From: Nitrospinota bacterium
GTDB lineage: Bacteria; Nitrospinota; Nitrospinia; JACRGO01
Direction: 5' to 3'
Length of the DNA stretch: 21,064 nt
Assembly (NCBI GenBank): GCA_016212295.1
Contig: JACRGO010000089.1
Coordinates: 1-21,064, forward strand
The position numbers were made by a program, and so were the translations under genes. Below the pieces are notes generated by a model. It had not been told where the DNA came from and did not search any database. It was given only the letters and a program-made list of their open reading frames with translations. Positions 9,105 through 21,064 of the stretch are shown here, piece by piece. The stretch's first letter is position 1; each line of letters begins with the position of its first letter.

Positions 9105-10700
9105 CTATGAATTCGCAATATGGAAAATCTTCAAGAGTTTTACTTCCCCCCTGCCTGTTTTTATTTCATACACCTGAGAGGATTTGAAGCGGGAAAGGGC
9201 CTCCGGCGCCTCCGCTGGCGGGTCCCACAGGAAATAATAATCGATCTTGTCCCTATTAAGTTCCTCGATCAATACCCCCCCCGCCTCGTTTTTCCTTGTC
9301 TCCCCGTAATATTTGCAATCCATGTGAAAAGCCATGAACATGCTTTCACCGTAATTCTTGTTGGAAGCGATATTGCCGCGAATCTCAAGTTCCCTCTTCA
9401 GCCTGTGTCCGTTCAGATAATGATGGTCCCCGTCCCTCCTGTATTTCACAAGCTCTATTATCGGATAGTTCATGAAACACAGCATGAAGATCCCCATGGC
9501 TGCCTTGAATTTCAGCTTGTCCGGCAGGCCGCGCCCGCTCAGCTTGCTCAGGATCTGCCCTCCCATTAAGGCGATCAGGATTTCATTCGGGTAGAGGTAT
9601 CTTCTCTCAACATATACCAGGGCATAGCCGAAAGAGTACAGGAGCAAGGCCGCCAAAGGGAAAAGGGCGTTGAGGAGCCTGTCTCTCTTGAGTGGAACAA
9701 GAAACATGAAAATATAGGCGGCCACGATTATTACATGGAGATCGGAGGTTTTGTCCAGAATGGAATAAATCTCAAGGATGTTCTTGGCAACGACGATTCC
9801 GTAATGCTTGAGGTCCTCCGGGGAGTCGAGAGGGCTCCAGGGCTCCAGGGGCAGATAAGACGGGTCCTCCCACGCGGAGGGCGCGGTCTCATTGGGTGGC
9901 TTCAGAAGTCCCATGCAGAGAATGGGATGGTCCGGCATTTTAGGCGACGCCTTGACCAGGAAATTGTATCGCCCGGCGGTCCCGATTGTGAATCCGCCGT
10001 ACTTGTTGGACAGCAGATAAATCCATCCGGATGTTATCACGAAAAAAACGATATACCCAGCGCACAGATTGCGGAGAACCGCCTTTCTCCTGTTCTTTCC
10101 GGTCTCGCGGAAGTAGTGAATGAGATTGAATAAAAGGAAGTGGAGCGCGAAAAAAGGCAAGGCGTAATTCTTGGAAAAGTACGCCAGGGCGCCGAAAAGA
10201 CCGCATAAGACCCCGTAGCGAACGGATTTCGCGTAGTCCTCGCTGGACAAAAAAACCAGGTAAAAGACCAAAAAGCATGTTATCAGCAAATCCGGGGTGA
10301 TCTGGCTGTAGGCCATGTACACAACCGACGGGACCAAGGCCAGGATAGAGGCCAGCCGCGCCTCTTCCCTCATTTCAAATTCGTATGACAGGGCGGTTAT
10401 GCCTGCCAGGGTGACTCCGCCCGCGATAAAGAGAATGATCTTCACGCCCAGCAGAGGGGGAACTCCCAAGAACAAGACCGGGACGAGCAGCCAGGAAATC
10501 ATTGGTCCCCAGTGTCCGTTGACCGCGTTCGCGAAATCCCCGTTGAGGTATTTCTGGGCAATGGAGATGTAGCTGATTCCGTCCGGGTTGATCTGATATT
10601 GATAGGAGGGCAGGAAGGCGGCCCCGAGTATCGTGTATACGGCCAGGAGAGAGAAGAAATATTTAGTAATAGTCCACCTATAAAAAGTTTTTTCTTTTAT
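9105..10700 (-). CDS. GT39/PMT-like membrane glycosyltransferase, start codon unclear
   Basis: This is a large polytopic membrane protein of the dolichyl/undecaprenyl-phosphate sugar transferase type (glycosyltransferase family 39, PMT_2-like). Such enzymes move a sugar from a lipid carrier onto protein or lipid at the outer face of the inner membrane. Many hydrophobic segments are visible (for example IILFIAGGVTLAGITAL and HVIIVAAYIFMFLVPL), followed by a soluble C-terminal part. The first ATG is at 10502, but coding clearly extends upstream. The 66 preceding codons give a first membrane helix (KYFFSLLAVYTILGAAF) and a loop with NPDGISY, whose Asp matches the catalytic loop of the family. 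This part contains no ATG, GTG or TTG in frame. The best candidate is ATA at 10700-10698, preceded by ATTCCC like the hoxY start. The frame begins directly after hoxY. It may use a rare start or be a 5'-damaged gene. Confidence 0.75.
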   Translation of the reverse strand: MKEKTFYRWTITKYFFSLLAVYTILGAAFLPSYQYQINPDGISYISIAQKYLNGDFANAVNGHWGPMISWLLVPVLFLGVPPLLGVKIILFIAGGVTLAGITALSYEFEMREEARLASILALVPSVVYMAYSQITPDLLITCFLVFYLVFLSSEDYAKSVRYGVLCGLFGALAYFSKNYALPFFALHFLLFNLIHYFRETGKNRRKAVLRNLCAGYIVFFVITSGWIYLLSNKYGGFTIGTAGRYNFLVKASPKMPDHPILCMGLLKPPNETAPSAWEDPSYLPLEPWSPLDSPEDLKHYGIVVAKNILEIYSILDKTSDLHVIIVAAYIFMFLVPLKRDRLLNALFPLAALLLYSFGYALVYVERRYLYPNEILIALMGGQILSKLSGRGLPDKLKFKAAMGIFMLCFMNYPIIELVKYRRDGDHHYLNGHRLKRELEIRGNIASNKNYGESMFMAFHMDCKYYGETRKNEAGGVLIEELNRDKIDYYFLWDPPAEAPEALSRFKSSQVYEIKTGRGEVKLLKIFHIANS

Positions 10701-10722
10701 GGGAATGGAGGCGGCTTGACTC

Positions 10723-11265
10723 TTAATCGTACTTCACTAACTCGTATGGCAATTCGGCGCCGGAGGTGACAAGGGCAAGCAGCGTTTCCCAGATCAGGTC
10801 GGCGCGGGGAGGGCAACCGGGAAGGAAGTAGTCTATCTTGACCAATTCGTGGCAGGGATAAACGCGGTCCAGGATAATGGGCAACTCATCGTCGTTGGGA
10901 ATAATTCCGCCGCCCGATTTGGAAGTGGGGACGTTTCGATACGCCTCTTCAAAGCACTCCCGGATGGGGATGTTATTCCGCAAGGCCGGCAGGCCGCCCA
11001 TGATGGCGCATTCGCCGACCGAGACAAGGACCTCGCAATTCTCGCGAAACTCCTTCAAGACATGGTAATTTTCGTCATTGCAGATCCCGCCCTCAATGAG
11101 GCCGATGTCGCACCGTTTACTGATCTTCTTGATATCAGTGATGGGGGAGCGGTTGAATTCAACAAGCTCGATCAGGTCCACCAGGCGCAGGTCTATATCC
11201 AGGATGGACATGTGGCAGCCGAAACAACCTGCCAGTGACGTTGTGGCCACGATTTTTTTTCTCAT
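10723..11265 (-). CDS. hoxY: NAD-linked [NiFe]-hydrogenase small subunit (HoxY)
   Basis: HoxY carries the proximal [4Fe-4S] cluster that takes electrons from the HoxH NiFe site. The 180 residues show the expected cysteines: AGCFGCHMS (Cys14, Cys17), GECAIMGG (Cys86) and LPGCPPRAD (Cys151). Neighbouring family residues (LDIDLRLVDL, VALVEG-like IGLIEGGICND, ALRNNIPI) also match. Length and the ending ELVKYD fit group 3d small subunits, so it appears complete. AGGAAGGAA upstream of ATG 11265 is a good ribosome site. The toxin gene stops 15 bases before this ATG, so hoxY has been separated from hoxU by about 1 kb. The large subunit hoxH, normally immediately downstream, is absent and a glycosyltransferase frame follows instead. 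Without a HoxH supplied elsewhere the protein has no catalytic partner. Confidence 0.9.
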   Translation of the reverse strand: MRKKIVATTSLAGCFGCHMSILDIDLRLVDLIELVEFNRSPITDIKKISKRCDIGLIEGGICNDENYHVLKEFRENCEVLVSVGECAIMGGLPALRNNIPIRECFEEAYRNVPTSKSGGGIIPNDDELPIILDRVYPCHELVKIDYFLPGCPPRADLIWETLLALVTSGAELPYELVKYD

Positions 11266-11280
11266 GGGAATTTCCTTCCT

Positions 11281-11592
11281 CTATGTGTTTAACCTTCTTT
11301 GCCACTCCGCTGGATTTCTGCGTTGGTGAAGCACGCCAAATACTGTTGCAATATTATCATCCTGCAAAAAATACACTGCATATGGGAAACGATGTAAAAG
11401 AGCCCTCTGTAATTCGCGATATACTTTCGGGAACAAATTTGGGTATTCTTCAATTCGCTGAAACAACAAATCCGTTTCTTCAAGAAAATTATTTCCAAGA
11501 CCTATTTGCTTTGATTCGTACCACTCAAAGGTTTCTCTAACATCATCTTCAGCTTCTGGACGAACAATCAGAGTTTTTACCATGTTTTTCAA
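11281..11592 (-). CDS. ParE/RelE-family toxin
   Basis: The roughly 100-residue protein has the plain ParE/RelE-toxin layout: LIVRPEAEDDVRETFEWYESKQIGLGNNFLEE, then IEEYPNLFPKVYRELQRALLHRFPYAVYFL, then IATVFGVLHQRRNPAEWQRR. Members either poison gyrase (ParE) or cleave mRNA at the ribosome (RelE); the VLHQRRNP ending is typical for ParE-like members. The frame starts at 11592 (MKNM), with an alternative ATG at 11583. It overlaps the antitoxin gene by about 40 bases, the usual coupled arrangement. Its stop codon almost touches the hoxY ribosome site, so hoxY may be read from the same transcript. Confidence 0.88.
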   Translation of the reverse strand: MKNMVKTLIVRPEAEDDVRETFEWYESKQIGLGNNFLEETDLLFQRIEEYPNLFPKVYRELQRALLHRFPYAVYFLQDDNIATVFGVLHQRRNPAEWQRRLNT

Positions 11593-11800
11593 TAATTCGT
11601 TTCTTTACTTCAGACCAGGGTGAGCCTGCATTAGGATTCTTATGGTATGCCTCAAGCCTTTTGTCCAGTTCTGCTTTCTGCCAATCTGGAATTTCAACGG
11701 TCTCCGGCAACTCGGCTATAGAATCCCATATATCTTCCACAAGACTTATTCTCTCTTGAATAGGCATTTTCGCGATATCAGAGACTGTAATTTGCTTCAT
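11549..11800 (-). CDS. antitoxin, addiction-module component family
   Basis: The 83-residue antitoxin starts at ATG 11800 (MKQITVSDIAKMP). I chose this over a longer frame because AGGAGA stands nine bases upstream. The core, IAKMPIQERISLVEDIWDSIAELPETVEIPDWQKAELDKRLEAY, followed by NPNAGSPWSEVKKRI, is the small putative addiction-module family that pairs with ParE/RelE toxins. That pairing is exactly what lies downstream. Such antitoxins neutralise the toxin and often repress their own promoter. The pair sits between hoxU and hoxY and is more AT-rich than the hox genes, indicating acquisition. Confidence 0.88.
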   Translation of the reverse strand: MKQITVSDIAKMPIQERISLVEDIWDSIAELPETVEIPDWQKAELDKRLEAYHKNPNAGSPWSEVKKRIIEKHGKNSDCSSRS

Positions 11801-11935
11801 GTTATTGTTCTCCTGTGAATGCTTAAGAGCTAAGTCATTGACGCATAACGCCAAAATAAATGGCGCACTTTTCAACATCCACTTGATTTTATGGTTATGT
11901 ATTTTTTATCAACGGCATTCTTTCGTATGCAAATA

Positions 11936-12142
11936 TTAAAGAAGATCAACAACTCGGTGATAAAAATTTTTTGAAGTCTTCCATATCTGCTCGCGACTAT
12001 TCCAAATATTTTTTAGTGATGGTCCTTTAATATTAAAGGATGGTAATTGACCATAGAACATAAGATGTCCTCTTAAAAATTTATCTTCAAAATCTTTATG
12101 TTTATTCCATTCCAAATATTTTAAAACTAATAATTTATGTAA
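11936..12142 (-). pseudogene. AT-rich 3' gene fragment, unknown family
   Basis: A minus-strand frame is open for 68 codons to a TAA at 11938-11936. It reads like real protein, with aromatic and charged residues well spread: YLEWNKHKDFEDKFLRGH, then MFYGQLPSFNIKGPSL, then WNSREQIWKTSKNFYHRVV. Base composition is much more AT-rich than the hox genes. There is no good start or ribosome site, and the frame is cut at its 5' side exactly where the repeat at 12139-12264 begins. I take it as the C-terminal remnant of a gene truncated by that repeat. A small intact gene starting at the in-frame TTG is less likely. I do not recognise the family. Confidence 0.4.
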
Positions 12143-12264
12143 CTATTCAGCGAATAATCCCCCTTTGTTAAGGGGGAATGGGTTGTGCCGTCCATCGTGG
12201 TATGTTCCCAGACATCGCCTGATTCCCCCTTGGAAAAGGGGGCCAGGGGGATGTAAAAAGACCG
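12139..12264. repeat. MITE-like palindromic repeat, copy 1
   Basis: It starts GTAACTATTCAGCGAA and contains CCCCCTTTGTTAAGGGGGAA and GGGTTGTGCCGTCCATCG. It continues through ACATCGCCTGATTCCC and ends GGGGGATGTAAAAAGACCG. The same series occurs at 20898-21064 in the same orientation. This copy lacks about 50 bases near its left end, including the left terminal motif TTTACATCCCCCT. It ends about 33 bases from the hoxU stop codon. Confidence 0.85.
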
Positions 12265-12296
12265 CAGGCTCCCTTATTAACCCTGGCGACTCAATG

Positions 12297-12974
12297 CTAT
12301 GGCTCCTTGTCATACTTCCTAGTCCCGATCGGGCGGTCAAATCCCTTGCCCTTGAAATTGATGCATCCGACCGGACAGATATCCGCGGCTTCCCTTGCCA
12401 ACTCCTCCGGCATGGTCCGGGCGATTTCCGGGTCGATCTCAACTGTCCCCTTCGCGCCCCGGTGATGGTAGGCAAACACCTTTTTGCCGTCCTCCGTGCG
12501 GATTTTCCGCACACACCTCTGGCAGAGTATGCAGCGGCTGTGCTCCAGCACCAAGTGCTTTGGGGAGAAATCTATATGGCGGGACGGGAAACGGTAGGGG
12601 AAGCGCGGGGCCATGATGCGGTACCGGTATGCCGCGGCCTGCAGTTCGCAGTCCCCGCTTTTTTCGCAGGCCGGACAAAAGTGGTTGCCCTCCACGAAAA
12701 GCGCCTCGATGATGGCCTTTCTCATATCTTCCAATTGTCGCGTGTAGACTTGGATGTTCATTCCCTCCTGAACCCGGTTGATGCAGGCCGCCCCGTTGTT
12801 TCCGTTGATCTTGACCGTGCAGCTCCGGCATGCCCCAACGGGATTTTCCACGTACTTGGAATAGCAGAGCGTCGGCACGTAGATGCCGTTAGCCCTTGCG
12901 GCCTCGACAATGGTCTGCCCTTCCTGGGCCTTGCATTCCTTGCCGTCAATTGTAAAAGTCACTTGTCCAGGCAC
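12297..12974 (-). CDS. hoxU: NAD-linked hydrogenase diaphorase iron-sulfur subunit (HoxU)
   Basis: HoxU wires electrons between the HoxF flavin site and HoxY. It corresponds to the N-terminal part of the complex I 75-kDa subunit (NuoG). The 225 residues show a [2Fe-2S] ferredoxin domain (Cys37, Cys49, Cys52, Cys64). A His-Cys3 [4Fe-4S] site follows (HFCPACEKSGDC: His98, Cys100, Cys103, Cys109). A CxxCxxC cluster (RCILCQRCVRKI: Cys148, Cys151, Cys154) has its fourth ligand in CPVGC. Length matches the roughly 230-residue HoxU of soluble NAD hydrogenases. The start is GTG at 12974 with AAGGA eight bases upstream. It lies 84 bases after hoxF; the gap is filled by tandem repeats. Downstream lie the palindromic repeat and the toxin-antitoxin segment rather than hoxY. 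Confidence 0.93.
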   Translation of the reverse strand: MPGQVTFTIDGKECKAQEGQTIVEAARANGIYVPTLCYSKYVENPVGACRSCTVKINGNNGAACINRVQEGMNIQVYTRQLEDMRKAIIEALFVEGNHFCPACEKSGDCELQAAAYRYRIMAPRFPYRFPSRHIDFSPKHLVLEHSRCILCQRCVRKIRTEDGKKVFAYHHRGAKGTVEIDPEIARTMPEELAREAADICPVGCINFKGKGFDRPIGTRKYDKEP

Positions 12975-12989
12975 TGATTTTTCCTTCCA

Positions 12990-13058
12990 CGAGGTTAAGC
13001 GTTCAGGGTTCAGGGTTCGGCGTTCAAGGTTCGAGGTTCGAGGTTCAATGTTTAATCT
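12990..13058. repeat. GTTCAGGGTTCGAGG-type tandem repeats between hoxF and hoxU
   Basis: Units of seven to eight bases (GTTCAGG, GTTCGGC, GTTCAAG, GTTCGAG) are repeated with variation from about 12994 and end at the hoxF stop codon. They widen a junction that is usually tight in hox operons. Confidence 0.7.
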
Positions 13059-14891
13059 TCAATGGCTCGAAGGCGTCCTGCCAGTTACTTCGCAGGATTC
13101 CTTCATCGCGGCCTTGATGTCAAAGTCGTAAATCAATGCGCCGCGCTCTTTTTTAATTCTGTCCATGTATTCATCCTTGAATTTCTCGATGCTCGTAAGA
13201 ATCGAATTCGGAGAAGACTGCCCCAGGCCGCACCGGCTGGACGCCTTAATCATATTGGCCCACTCCACCATTTGGTCAATGTGTTCAGGAAGCCCTCTTC
13301 CCTCGCGTATGGTTTTCAGGAGATCGGAAAGGATCGGATTGCCCGCCCGGCACGGAACGCAGGCGCCGCAGGATTCCTCCGCGAAAAAGTCAATAAAGTT
13401 CTGGGCAACGTCCGGCATGCTGCGCTCCTGCCCGAAAACAATCATCGATCCGCCTGTGGCCAGGTCCTCGAAACAAACCTTGCGGGCGGTCTCCCTTGCT
13501 GAAATGGTCTTGCCAGAGGGTCCGCCGATTTGCAGGGCCTTGGCGTTTCCTGCGTCAAACATCTTGAGCAGGTCCTCCACCTTCCGGCCCCATTCCACCT
13601 CGTAAACTCCGGGACGGCCGCAATCCCCTGAAACGCTCAGGATTTTCGTCCCGACCGATTTAGCGGTGCCTAGGGTATTGAACCAGGTCCCTCCGTATTT
13701 AATGATCTGCGCCACAAGGCTGAAGGTCTCGACATTGTTGACAACGGTCGGCTTCCCCCTGAAACCCACGACTACCGGGAAAGGGGGACGGTTCCTAGGC
13801 TCCCCGCGCTTGCCTTCCAGTGACTCCAGCAGGGCCGACTCCTCGCCGCACACATAAGCGCCAGCGCCAAGCCTGATGCTGATATCAAAATCAAACCCGC
13901 TCTTGCCTAATATGCTGTTGCCCAGCAAATTTTCCTTTCTTAATTCATCAAGCGTCCTTTGCAAGTGCGGCGTCAGATAACGGTATTCCGCCCTTAGATA
14001 AAGATAGCCCTGTCTTGCTCCAACAGCGTAGGCCGCCGCGGCCATTCCCTCGAAAACCCTTGCGGGCCACTCGGTCAGAAGCACGCGGTCCTTGAACGTC
14101 CCAGGCTCCCCTTCATCGGCGTTGCAGACAATATACTTTTCGTCTCCCTTGGCCGAGGCGCAAAATTGCCATTTGAGGGCTGTGGGAAATCCCGCGCCTC
14201 CCATTCCTCGCAAGTTGGAATTTTTAATTAAATCGATGATTTCCCCGGGTTTGTGCTTCAGCGCGGAACGAATGCTTTCGCCCATGTTGTACCCGACCCC
14301 TAAAAGGACCGGCCCCTTGCGCCGGATGTTAGGGGGAGCGATGAATCTGGCCAGTTTATGCGGATCGGACGATAAATCCTGTCCCACCCCCATCAATTCA
14401 AGGACGCTCTTTCCCTCCCGCATTCCCTTCACCAAGCGCTCCACGGAAAAGGGTGTCAGGCTGCCGAAGGGCATTCCATTGATAAGGGCGGAGGGCTCCT
14501 GGTCGCACATGCCTATGCAGGAGGTTTCAAACAACCCGATACGCCCGTCCTTGTCCGTTTCCCCGAAAGAGCAGCCGGCTTCCTTCTCAAAGGCATCGCG
14601 GATTTTCTGGAATCCCGCCATTCGCGAGGTGATGCTGTTGTTTAAATAAACCGTGTATTCGCCGGTGTGGGCGGTGGTAAAAAAATGGTAGAAGGTGATG
14701 GTCTCCATCACATCAACCTGCGATATCCCCATTTTTTGGGCCGCCAATGGAATGGCCGCCTTAGGAATGTGATGAAACCTGTCCTGCAGTTCCCAAAGAA
14801 TATTTATCAGTTCGGACCTGTCCGCCGGATATCCGGCCAGGATAGACGCGGTTTCCGCCTTGACTGCGTCATCACCAGCAACCTTAGCCAT
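13059..14891 (-). CDS. hoxF: NAD-linked hydrogenase diaphorase flavoprotein (HoxF, NuoE-NuoF fusion)
   Basis: HoxF binds FMN and NAD(H) and is the entry or exit point for hydride in soluble NAD-reducing hydrogenases. The 610 residues fuse a NuoE-like domain (1-160) to a NuoF-like domain (about 170-600), as in the roughly 600-residue HoxF of Ralstonia-type enzymes. NuoF marks are all present: LRGMGGAGFPTALKW (FMN), CNADEGEPGTFKDR, LGAGAYVCGEESALLESLEG (NADH), and the [4Fe-4S] ligands ESCGACVPCR (508, 511, 514) with Cys554. In the NuoE part only the second Cys pair remains (SCIGMC, 125 and 129); where the first pair should be there is LNNSITSR. The start ATGGCTAA overlaps the stop of the upstream CBS-domain gene by eight bases, implying translational coupling. 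The last residues run into tandem repeats. Confidence 0.94.
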   Translation of the reverse strand: MAKVAGDDAVKAETASILAGYPADRSELINILWELQDRFHHIPKAAIPLAAQKMGISQVDVMETITFYHFFTTAHTGEYTVYLNNSITSRMAGFQKIRDAFEKEAGCSFGETDKDGRIGLFETSCIGMCDQEPSALINGMPFGSLTPFSVERLVKGMREGKSVLELMGVGQDLSSDPHKLARFIAPPNIRRKGPVLLGVGYNMGESIRSALKHKPGEIIDLIKNSNLRGMGGAGFPTALKWQFCASAKGDEKYIVCNADEGEPGTFKDRVLLTEWPARVFEGMAAAAYAVGARQGYLYLRAEYRYLTPHLQRTLDELRKENLLGNSILGKSGFDFDISIRLGAGAYVCGEESALLESLEGKRGEPRNRPPFPVVVGFRGKPTVVNNVETFSLVAQIIKYGGTWFNTLGTAKSVGTKILSVSGDCGRPGVYEVEWGRKVEDLLKMFDAGNAKALQIGGPSGKTISARETARKVCFEDLATGGSMIVFGQERSMPDVAQNFIDFFAEESCGACVPCRAGNPILSDLLKTIREGRGLPEHIDQMVEWANMIKASSRCGLGQSSPNSILTSIEKFKDEYMDRIKKERGALIYDFDIKAAMKESCEVTGRTPSSH

Positions 14892-15324
14892 AGATATATC
14901 TTTCCAGTTGATTGATCACGAATTGTTTATCGGAGATCATGGTCTTGACCGCGTCTCCAATGGAGATGACGCCTATCACTTTTCTTCTGTTTTCCAGGAC
15001 CGGCAAATGCCTGTAACGGTTTTTGGTCATCAGCCCCATGCACTCTTCAAGCGTGCTGGTCGGCTCCACGAAAAGGATTTTTTCGCTCATTAAATCCTTT
15101 ACCTTGAACTCCCTCGGCAACTTATCGCTTGCTCCCAGCTTGCGTGAAATGTCCCTTTCGGAAAGGATTCCCACCAACTCCTCTCCCTTCATGACCAAGA
15201 GAGCCCCCAGGTTTTCCCTGGCCATCAATGCCGCCGCTTCAGGAATGGACGCCTCCGGATCAATGGAAACAATGGAGCTTTCCTTGTCCTTGTCTTTAAG
15301 CATTTGCTCAACGGTAGTGGACAT
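14884..15324 (-). CDS. CBS-domain pair protein
   Basis: The 146 residues consist of little more than two CBS domains: VEQMLKD...IVSIDPEASIPEAAALMARENLGALLVMKG and VKDLMSEKILFVEPTSTLEECMGLMTKNRYRHLPVLEN. Stand-alone CBS pairs usually bind adenine nucleotides (AMP, ATP, sometimes NAD) and act as energy sensors. AAAGGA precedes the ATG at 15324. The stop overlaps the hoxF start by eight bases, so the two proteins are probably made together. Control of the diaphorase by nucleotide binding is a reasonable guess, but nothing in the sequence proves contact with HoxF. No transporter or enzyme domain is attached. Confidence 0.9.
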   Translation of the reverse strand: MSTTVEQMLKDKDKESSIVSIDPEASIPEAAALMARENLGALLVMKGEELVGILSERDISRKLGASDKLPREFKVKDLMSEKILFVEPTSTLEECMGLMTKNRYRHLPVLENRRKVIGVISIGDAVKTMISDKQFVINQLERYIYG

Positions 15325-20897: not shown

Positions 20898-21064
20898 GTA
20901 ACTATTCAGCGAAATATTATATAACCCCGATAGTCGCCGTTAAATGCATCTTTACATCCCCCTTAATCCCCCTTTGTTAAGGGGGAATGGGTTGTGCCGT
21001 CCATCGCCCGGACATCGCCTGATTCCCTCTTGGAAAAGGGGGCCAGGGGGATGTAAAAAGACCG
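20898..21064. repeat. MITE-like palindromic repeat, copy 2 (reaches the window end)
   Basis: It begins GTAACTATTCAGCGAA like copy 1 but keeps about 50 more bases, ending with TTTACATCCCCCTTAATCCC. TTTACATCCCCCT (20950-20962) pairs with AGGGGGATGTAAA near 21045-21057, giving terminal inverted repeats about 95 bases apart. An inner palindrome CCCCCTTTGTTAAGGGGG is also present. There is no reading frame inside. The element may continue past the window. Confidence 0.85.

What the first reader, a model, noticed from the sequence alone, without database searches (positions are those of the whole stretch)
10723..14891. NAD-linked hydrogenase operon split by an inserted segment and missing hoxH
Seen directly: hoxF and hoxU are followed by about 1 kb (11266-12296) holding a palindromic repeat, an AT-rich gene fragment and a toxin-antitoxin pair, and only then hoxY. 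Known: group 3d hydrogenase genes normally run hoxF-U-Y-H closely together. Here a glycosyltransferase follows hoxY. Either hoxH is supplied from another locus or the hydrogenase is dead and HoxFU survive as a diaphorase. Intact cysteine motifs in HoxU and HoxY argue that decay, if any, is recent.
Basis: partly seen in the sequence, partly recalled or inferred. Interest (0 to 1): 0.7.

Follow-up and report, generated by a model that had tools for sequence, protein, structure and literature searches.

The report
NAD-linked hydrogenase operon split in two
The genes for an ordinary hydrogen-handling enzyme are here broken into two groups, and the catalytic subunit that looks missing is present, with its processing protease, elsewhere in the same genome, so the enzyme is probably intact and only its gene order is unusual.

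Summary
On the minus strand the window carries a CBS-domain gene, a fused hoxE-hoxF, hoxU, then 1,031 bp of foreign-looking DNA (a truncated MITE-like repeat, AT-rich DNA, an antitoxin-toxin pair), then hoxY, then a membrane glycosyltransferase. hoxH is absent from the window but not from the genome: a full-length HoxH with both CxxC pairs and a C-terminal extension, followed by a maturation protease, lies on another contig (G000:C92). It is the genome's only group-3d-like large subunit, and the window's hoxY is the only matching small subunit. HypC, HypD and HypE are present. Conserved cysteines are intact in all four proteins, and HoxEF and HoxU are not diverging unusually fast relative to HoxH. 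So "dead hydrogenase, surviving diaphorase" is not supported; "hoxH supplied from another locus" is. In the sister species and in all 80 nearest loci examined, hoxH follows hoxY, so the split looks derived in this lineage. The same arrangement (hoxEFUY together, hoxH and hoxW elsewhere) is published for two cyanobacterial genomes. A misassembly at the MITE is unlikely but not excluded, because its core recurs at 99-100% identity elsewhere. An ordinary enzyme with a locally unusual gene order.

The parts
14884..15324 (-). CBS-domain protein directly upstream of hoxEF, overlapping its start; probably the first gene of the operon
   Evidence: PF00571 E 8.4e-27; a CBS gene also lies just upstream of hoxEF in at least L129 and L160
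13059..14891 (-). hoxEF: fused HoxE-HoxF, NAD- and FMN-binding diaphorase subunit
   Evidence: PF01257, PF01512, PF10589; the same fusion in sister G001; near-invariant cysteines all kept
12297..12974 (-). hoxU: 2Fe-2S/4Fe-4S diaphorase subunit
   Evidence: PF13510, PF10588, PF22117; best NCBIfam model HoxU PRK07569, below its cut-off; 11 of 11 near-invariant cysteines kept
12139..12281 (+). truncated MITE-like element: 14-bp left terminal inverted repeat GTAACTATTCAGCG present, right end missing, 15 bp from the hoxU stop
   Evidence: core repeated at 99-100% identity in several other places, about 20 near-full copies; terminal inverted repeats and 8-bp target duplications in six intact copies
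11880..12138 (.). AT-rich DNA (26% GC) of unknown origin between the repeat and the antitoxin
   Evidence: composition; no Pfam match to its broken frame; no second copy in G000 and absent from G001
11549..11878 (-). antitoxin of a type II toxin-antitoxin pair (protein probably starts near 11800)
   Evidence: PF09720 E 4.8e-21, TIGR02574 above cut-off
11281..11592 (-). ParE/RelE-like toxin; its stop is 15 bp upstream of the hoxY start
   Evidence: PF05016 E 8.9e-6, above the gathering score; junction sequence
10723..11265 (-). hoxY: small subunit of the NAD-linked [NiFe] hydrogenase
   Evidence: PF01058; 5xf9_C E 1.6e-55; single copy in the genome; 64-76% identical to HoxY in 80 loci
9105..10700 (-). 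membrane glycosyltransferase (PMT_2) that follows hoxY; its frame has no ATG/GTG/TTG start before 10502, so it looks truncated at the hoxY junction
   Evidence: PF13231 E 5.9e-7; absent from G001; frame read

Best explanation
This is a group 3d NAD(P)-linked bidirectional [NiFe] hydrogenase whose once contiguous operon, (CBS)-hoxEF-hoxU-hoxY-hoxH-hoxW, has been split by genome rearrangement. The diaphorase genes and hoxY stayed at the window's locus, where mobile DNA (a MITE-like repeat) and a toxin-antitoxin pair now lie between hoxU and hoxY. hoxH and its protease hoxW now lie downstream of a tRNA-Arg gene on another contig. Shown: all genes present and intact, one group-3d-like hoxY and one group-3d-like hoxH in the genome, and contiguous order in relatives. 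Inferred: the two sets of products assemble in trans into a working HoxEFUYH enzyme that exchanges electrons between H2 and NAD(H). Also inferred: hoxY is read together with the toxin-antitoxin genes, 15 bp downstream of the toxin, and hoxH from its own upstream region.
For: HoxH at G000:C92:21358-22803 has RLCGICPVSHH and DPCLSCATH and a 24-residue C-terminal extension. Its best solved relative is the large subunit of the NAD-reducing hydrogenase 5xf9_D, E 2.3e-160, the same enzyme whose small subunit is HoxY's best hit. A maturation protease (TIGR00072 above cut-off) follows it. C92 belongs to this genome: its pdxJ is single-copy and 80% identical to the sister species', with folP-pdxJ-ORF synteny. 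hoxH GC is 0.538, against 0.540 for hoxY and 0.549 for hoxEF. Sister G001 and all 80 nearest loci have hoxH next after hoxY. The EF:H, U:H and Y:H divergence ratios are average, ranks 35, 44 and 37 of 70. HypC, HypE and HypD are present. HoxH data do not reject the grouping seen for HoxY (p-AU 0.685).
Against: No expression or activity data. The gene trees are poorly resolved around this genome, so a common origin of hoxY and hoxH is compatible with the data but not shown. HoxH departs from 10 of 193 near-invariant columns, the most of any row, so it is a somewhat unusual HoxH. The genome is a 237-contig draft and the joins have not been checked with reads; the repeat core at 12155-12281 is 100% identical to another contig over 127 bp.
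Confidence: 0.83

Rival explanations
1. Assembly artefact: the contig was wrongly joined through the repeated MITE-like element, or hoxY and hoxH are really adjacent and the assembler swapped the two contigs.
For: The element's core is repeated at 99-100% identity over 121-127 bp and many contigs end in or next to it. The window's own right end lies in another copy. The PMT gene after hoxY lacks a normal start codon.
Against: A random join at one of about 20 copies is unlikely to bring the genome's only hoxY back near its ancestral neighbour hoxU on the right strand. The hoxY-PMT junction (10640-10760) is single-copy in the genome. The repeat upstream of hoxH is at most 96% identical between copies, so no shared exact repeat could have swapped the hoxY and hoxH junctions.
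Confidence: 0.1
2. The hydrogenase is inactive and HoxEFU (with HoxY) is kept as a diaphorase.
For: No hoxH in the window. In Synechocystis, HoxEFU can be isolated as a sub-complex (PMC7363133, abstract).
Against: A full-length HoxH with its protease is present. HoxY, useless without HoxH, is intact and 64-76% identical to other HoxY. There is no excess divergence in EF or U.
Confidence: 0.04
3. The hoxH-hoxW pair on C92 was acquired separately and replaced a lost original hoxH, so HoxY and HoxH have different origins but still pair.
For: The poorly supported FastTree placements differ: HoxY with L105/L108, HoxH with L155.
Against: Those branches have low support. HoxH held with L105 and L108 is not rejected (p-AU 0.685). 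GC content is the same.
Confidence: 0.12

Closest known systems
Group 3d NAD(P)-linked bidirectional [NiFe] hydrogenase, HoxEFUYH (solved NAD-reducing hydrogenase 5xf9; Synechocystis Hox)
   Same: All subunits present; same cofactor cysteines; large and small subunits hit 5xf9 best; maturation protease next to hoxH
   Different: hoxE and hoxF are fused, as in the sister species, and the structural genes lie at two loci
'Group 3' hox gene arrangement in the cyanobacterial survey PMC5186783
   Same: hoxE, hoxF, hoxU, hoxY clustered in one orientation, hoxH and hoxW elsewhere, reported in two genomes
   Different: That is in cyanobacteria; here hoxH and hoxW stay together, and a MITE-like repeat and toxin-antitoxin genes sit between hoxU and hoxY
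MITEs with 8-bp target duplications and GTAA-type ends (IS66-like by my own knowledge)
   Same: 14-bp terminal inverted repeats GTAACTATTCAGCG, 8-bp target duplications in six intact copies
   Different: No transposase with these ends was found; the only PF03050 hit (C81) lies in a 706-aa ORF without such ends nearby

Membership tests
Group 3d NAD-linked [NiFe] hydrogenase | Large subunit with N- and C-terminal CxxC pairs of the HoxH type | tested here: met
   RLCGICPVSHH and DPCLSCATH at C92; 5xf9_D E 2.3e-160
Group 3d NAD-linked [NiFe] hydrogenase | Small subunit HoxY with the cysteines of the proximal 4Fe-4S cluster | tested here: met
   All six near-invariant cysteine columns kept; 5xf9_C E 1.6e-55
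Group 3d NAD-linked [NiFe] hydrogenase | Diaphorase HoxF (FMN/NAD, 4Fe-4S) and HoxU | tested here: met
   Pfam domains and cysteines
Group 3d NAD-linked [NiFe] hydrogenase | Structural genes contiguous, hoxY next to hoxH (typical, not defining) | tested here: not met
   hoxH on another contig; cyanobacterial exceptions to contiguity are published, so this does not exclude membership
Group 3d NAD-linked [NiFe] hydrogenase | Cognate protease and Hyp maturation genes | tested here: met
   TIGR00072 protease after hoxH; HypD, HypC, HypE above cut-off; HypA, HypB and HypF were not searched
Group 3d NAD-linked [NiFe] hydrogenase | H2:NAD+ oxidoreductase activity | not testable with these tools
   needs expression and assay
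Type II toxin-antitoxin pair | Adjacent antitoxin and toxin genes of known families | tested here: met
   PF09720 and PF05016, overlapping ORFs
MITE | Terminal inverted repeats, target duplication, no transposase gene inside, many copies | tested here: met
   Met for the family in this genome; the window copy itself has lost its right end

The most novel reading that the evidence does not exclude
hoxY has come under the control of an autoregulated toxin-antitoxin operon, and hoxH under a dispersed 68-bp promoter-like repeat. The two halves of one hydrogenase would then be switched by two unrelated signals.
Probability: 0.08. Interest if true: 0.5.

Novelty: new member of a known kind. Interest (0 to 1): 0.2.

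Why it matters
It corrects a likely annotation error: a single-contig reading would call this hydrogenase incomplete, whereas the genome encodes a complete enzyme. It is a further case of a hoxEFUY / hoxHW split, with mobile DNA at the locus, and a reminder to search the whole genome before declaring an operon broken.

Tried and rejected
Decay of HoxEF or HoxU tested by divergence ratios and conserved columns: not seen. A gene in the AT-rich stretch: no Pfam match. A shared repeat at the hoxY-PMT and tRNA-hoxH junctions that could explain a swap by misassembly: none. A MITE end upstream of hoxH (GCAACTGTTCAGCG, 2 mismatches): not beyond chance in that scan (0.84 matches expected at up to 3 mismatches). 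An autonomous IS66 partner for the MITE: the only PF03050 hit lacks the ends. Using the sister species as proof of the ancestral order: weaker than it looks, because its hox proteins are among the most distant in the set, although a G000+G001 clade is not rejected for HoxY.

Full report
Observation. The window is one whole contig (C37) of a 3.74-Mb, 237-contig draft genome, 90.5% complete. On the minus strand it carries, in order, a CBS-domain gene, a fused hoxE-hoxF, hoxU, a 1,031-bp gap, hoxY, and a PMT_2-type membrane glycosyltransferase. The gap contains a palindromic repeat, AT-rich DNA and an antitoxin-toxin pair. Two details differ: hoxF is a HoxE-HoxF fusion, and the AT-rich stretch is not demonstrably a gene fragment.

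Where is hoxH? A search of the genome with the NiFe large-subunit family finds several hydrogenases. Most are of other types: a complete membrane-type enzyme on C130, a NiFeSe-like one on C161, fragments at the ends of C49, C216 and C9, and a membrane complex on C171. One, at C92:21358-22803, is HoxH: 482 residues, best solved relative the large subunit of the NAD-reducing hydrogenase 5xf9 (E 2.3e-160). It has RLCGICPVSHH near the N-terminus and DPCLSCATH followed by a 24-residue extension at the C-terminus. The next gene is a hydrogenase maturation protease (TIGR00072). Upstream lie a tRNA-Arg gene, an uncharacterised ORF, pdxJ and folP. The pdxJ is single-copy and 80% identical to the one in the only other genome of the genus found in the search, where folP-pdxJ-ORF also occurs in that order. 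C92 therefore belongs to this genome.

Is the split real and derived? In the sister genome G001 the order is hoxEF-hoxU-hoxY-hoxH-hoxW without interruption. A scan of named genomes returned 80 loci with HoxY 64-76% identical. In all of them hoxH is the next hox gene, within 600 bp downstream of hoxY on the same strand, and where the contig reaches far enough the maturation gene nearly always follows. These 80 were chosen for similarity to HoxY, so they are not a random sample. The G001 hox proteins are among the most distant in the set, so the sister operon may not be the direct counterpart, although a G000+G001 clade is not rejected for HoxY. The split is in any case confined, in what was examined, to this genome.

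Is the enzyme dead? No sign of it. All near-invariant cysteines are kept in HoxEF, HoxU, HoxY and HoxH. The divergence of EF, U and Y relative to H is average among 70 loci. HypD, HypC and HypE are present. HoxH departs from 10 of 193 near-invariant positions, the highest count in the set. This is a mild oddity; the metal-binding cysteines are not among the departures.

What is the inserted segment? The repeat belongs to a family with 14-bp terminal inverted repeats GTAACTATTCAGCG and 8-bp target duplications, shown on six intact copies. There are about 20 near-full copies in the genome. The window copy (12139-12281) has its left end but lacks the right end, and stops 15 bp from the hoxU stop codon. 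The antitoxin and toxin are in the same orientation as hoxY, and the toxin ends 15 bp before the hoxY start, with a ribosome-binding-like AGGAAGGAAA between them. Co-transcription of toxin-antitoxin and hoxY is therefore likely, but it is inferred.

Assembly. Many contigs of this genome end in or next to the MITE, so a wrong join at 12155-12281 is conceivable. It is unlikely, because the join reunites the genome's only hoxY with its ancestral neighbour hoxU on the same strand. The hoxY-glycosyltransferase junction is single-copy DNA. The repeat near hoxH is at most 96% identical between copies, too little to confuse an assembler. The glycosyltransferase frame has no normal start codon downstream of hoxY before 10502, which marks that junction as a likely breakpoint, biological or technical.

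Compared with what is known. The enzyme is a standard group 3d hydrogenase. The gene arrangement is uncommon but published: a survey of cyanobacteria describes two genomes with hoxEFUY together and hoxH and hoxW elsewhere (PMC5186783). The finding is therefore a new instance of a known kind of arrangement.

Noticed in passing
L013:10831-10898 (27 bp upstream of hoxH) and more than 40 other places in G000: An oriented 68-bp dispersed repeat (CATGCGCGCTCC...GTAATAATATA). Several copies are followed within about 30 bp by a start codon in the same orientation and two by a tRNA gene; it may carry a promoter.
   Followed up: partly
L170:2574-4286 (G000:C118): A 570-aa formyltransferase plus enoyl-CoA hydratase protein next to HypD; resembles HypX, a hydrogenase maturation factor of aerobic hydrogen users (name from my own knowledge; domains).
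   Followed up: partly
window 20898-21064: A second copy of the MITE-like element forms the right end of the contig; its left inverted repeat is intact and the rest is cut by the contig end.
   Followed up: yes
L011:1484-1758 (G000:C49): An intact MITE-like element with a perfect 8-bp duplication just downstream of another hydrogenase large subunit and its protease.
   Followed up: partly
window 9105-10700: Glycosyltransferase frame lacking ATG/GTG/TTG upstream of 10502; the part with the first membrane helix and the NPDG motif would be read only from an unusual start.
   Followed up: partly
L013:1045-8213: CRISPR-associated genes (Cmr/Csm-like, Cas1-like by eye) and a repeat-rich stretch downstream of hoxW.
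   Followed up: no
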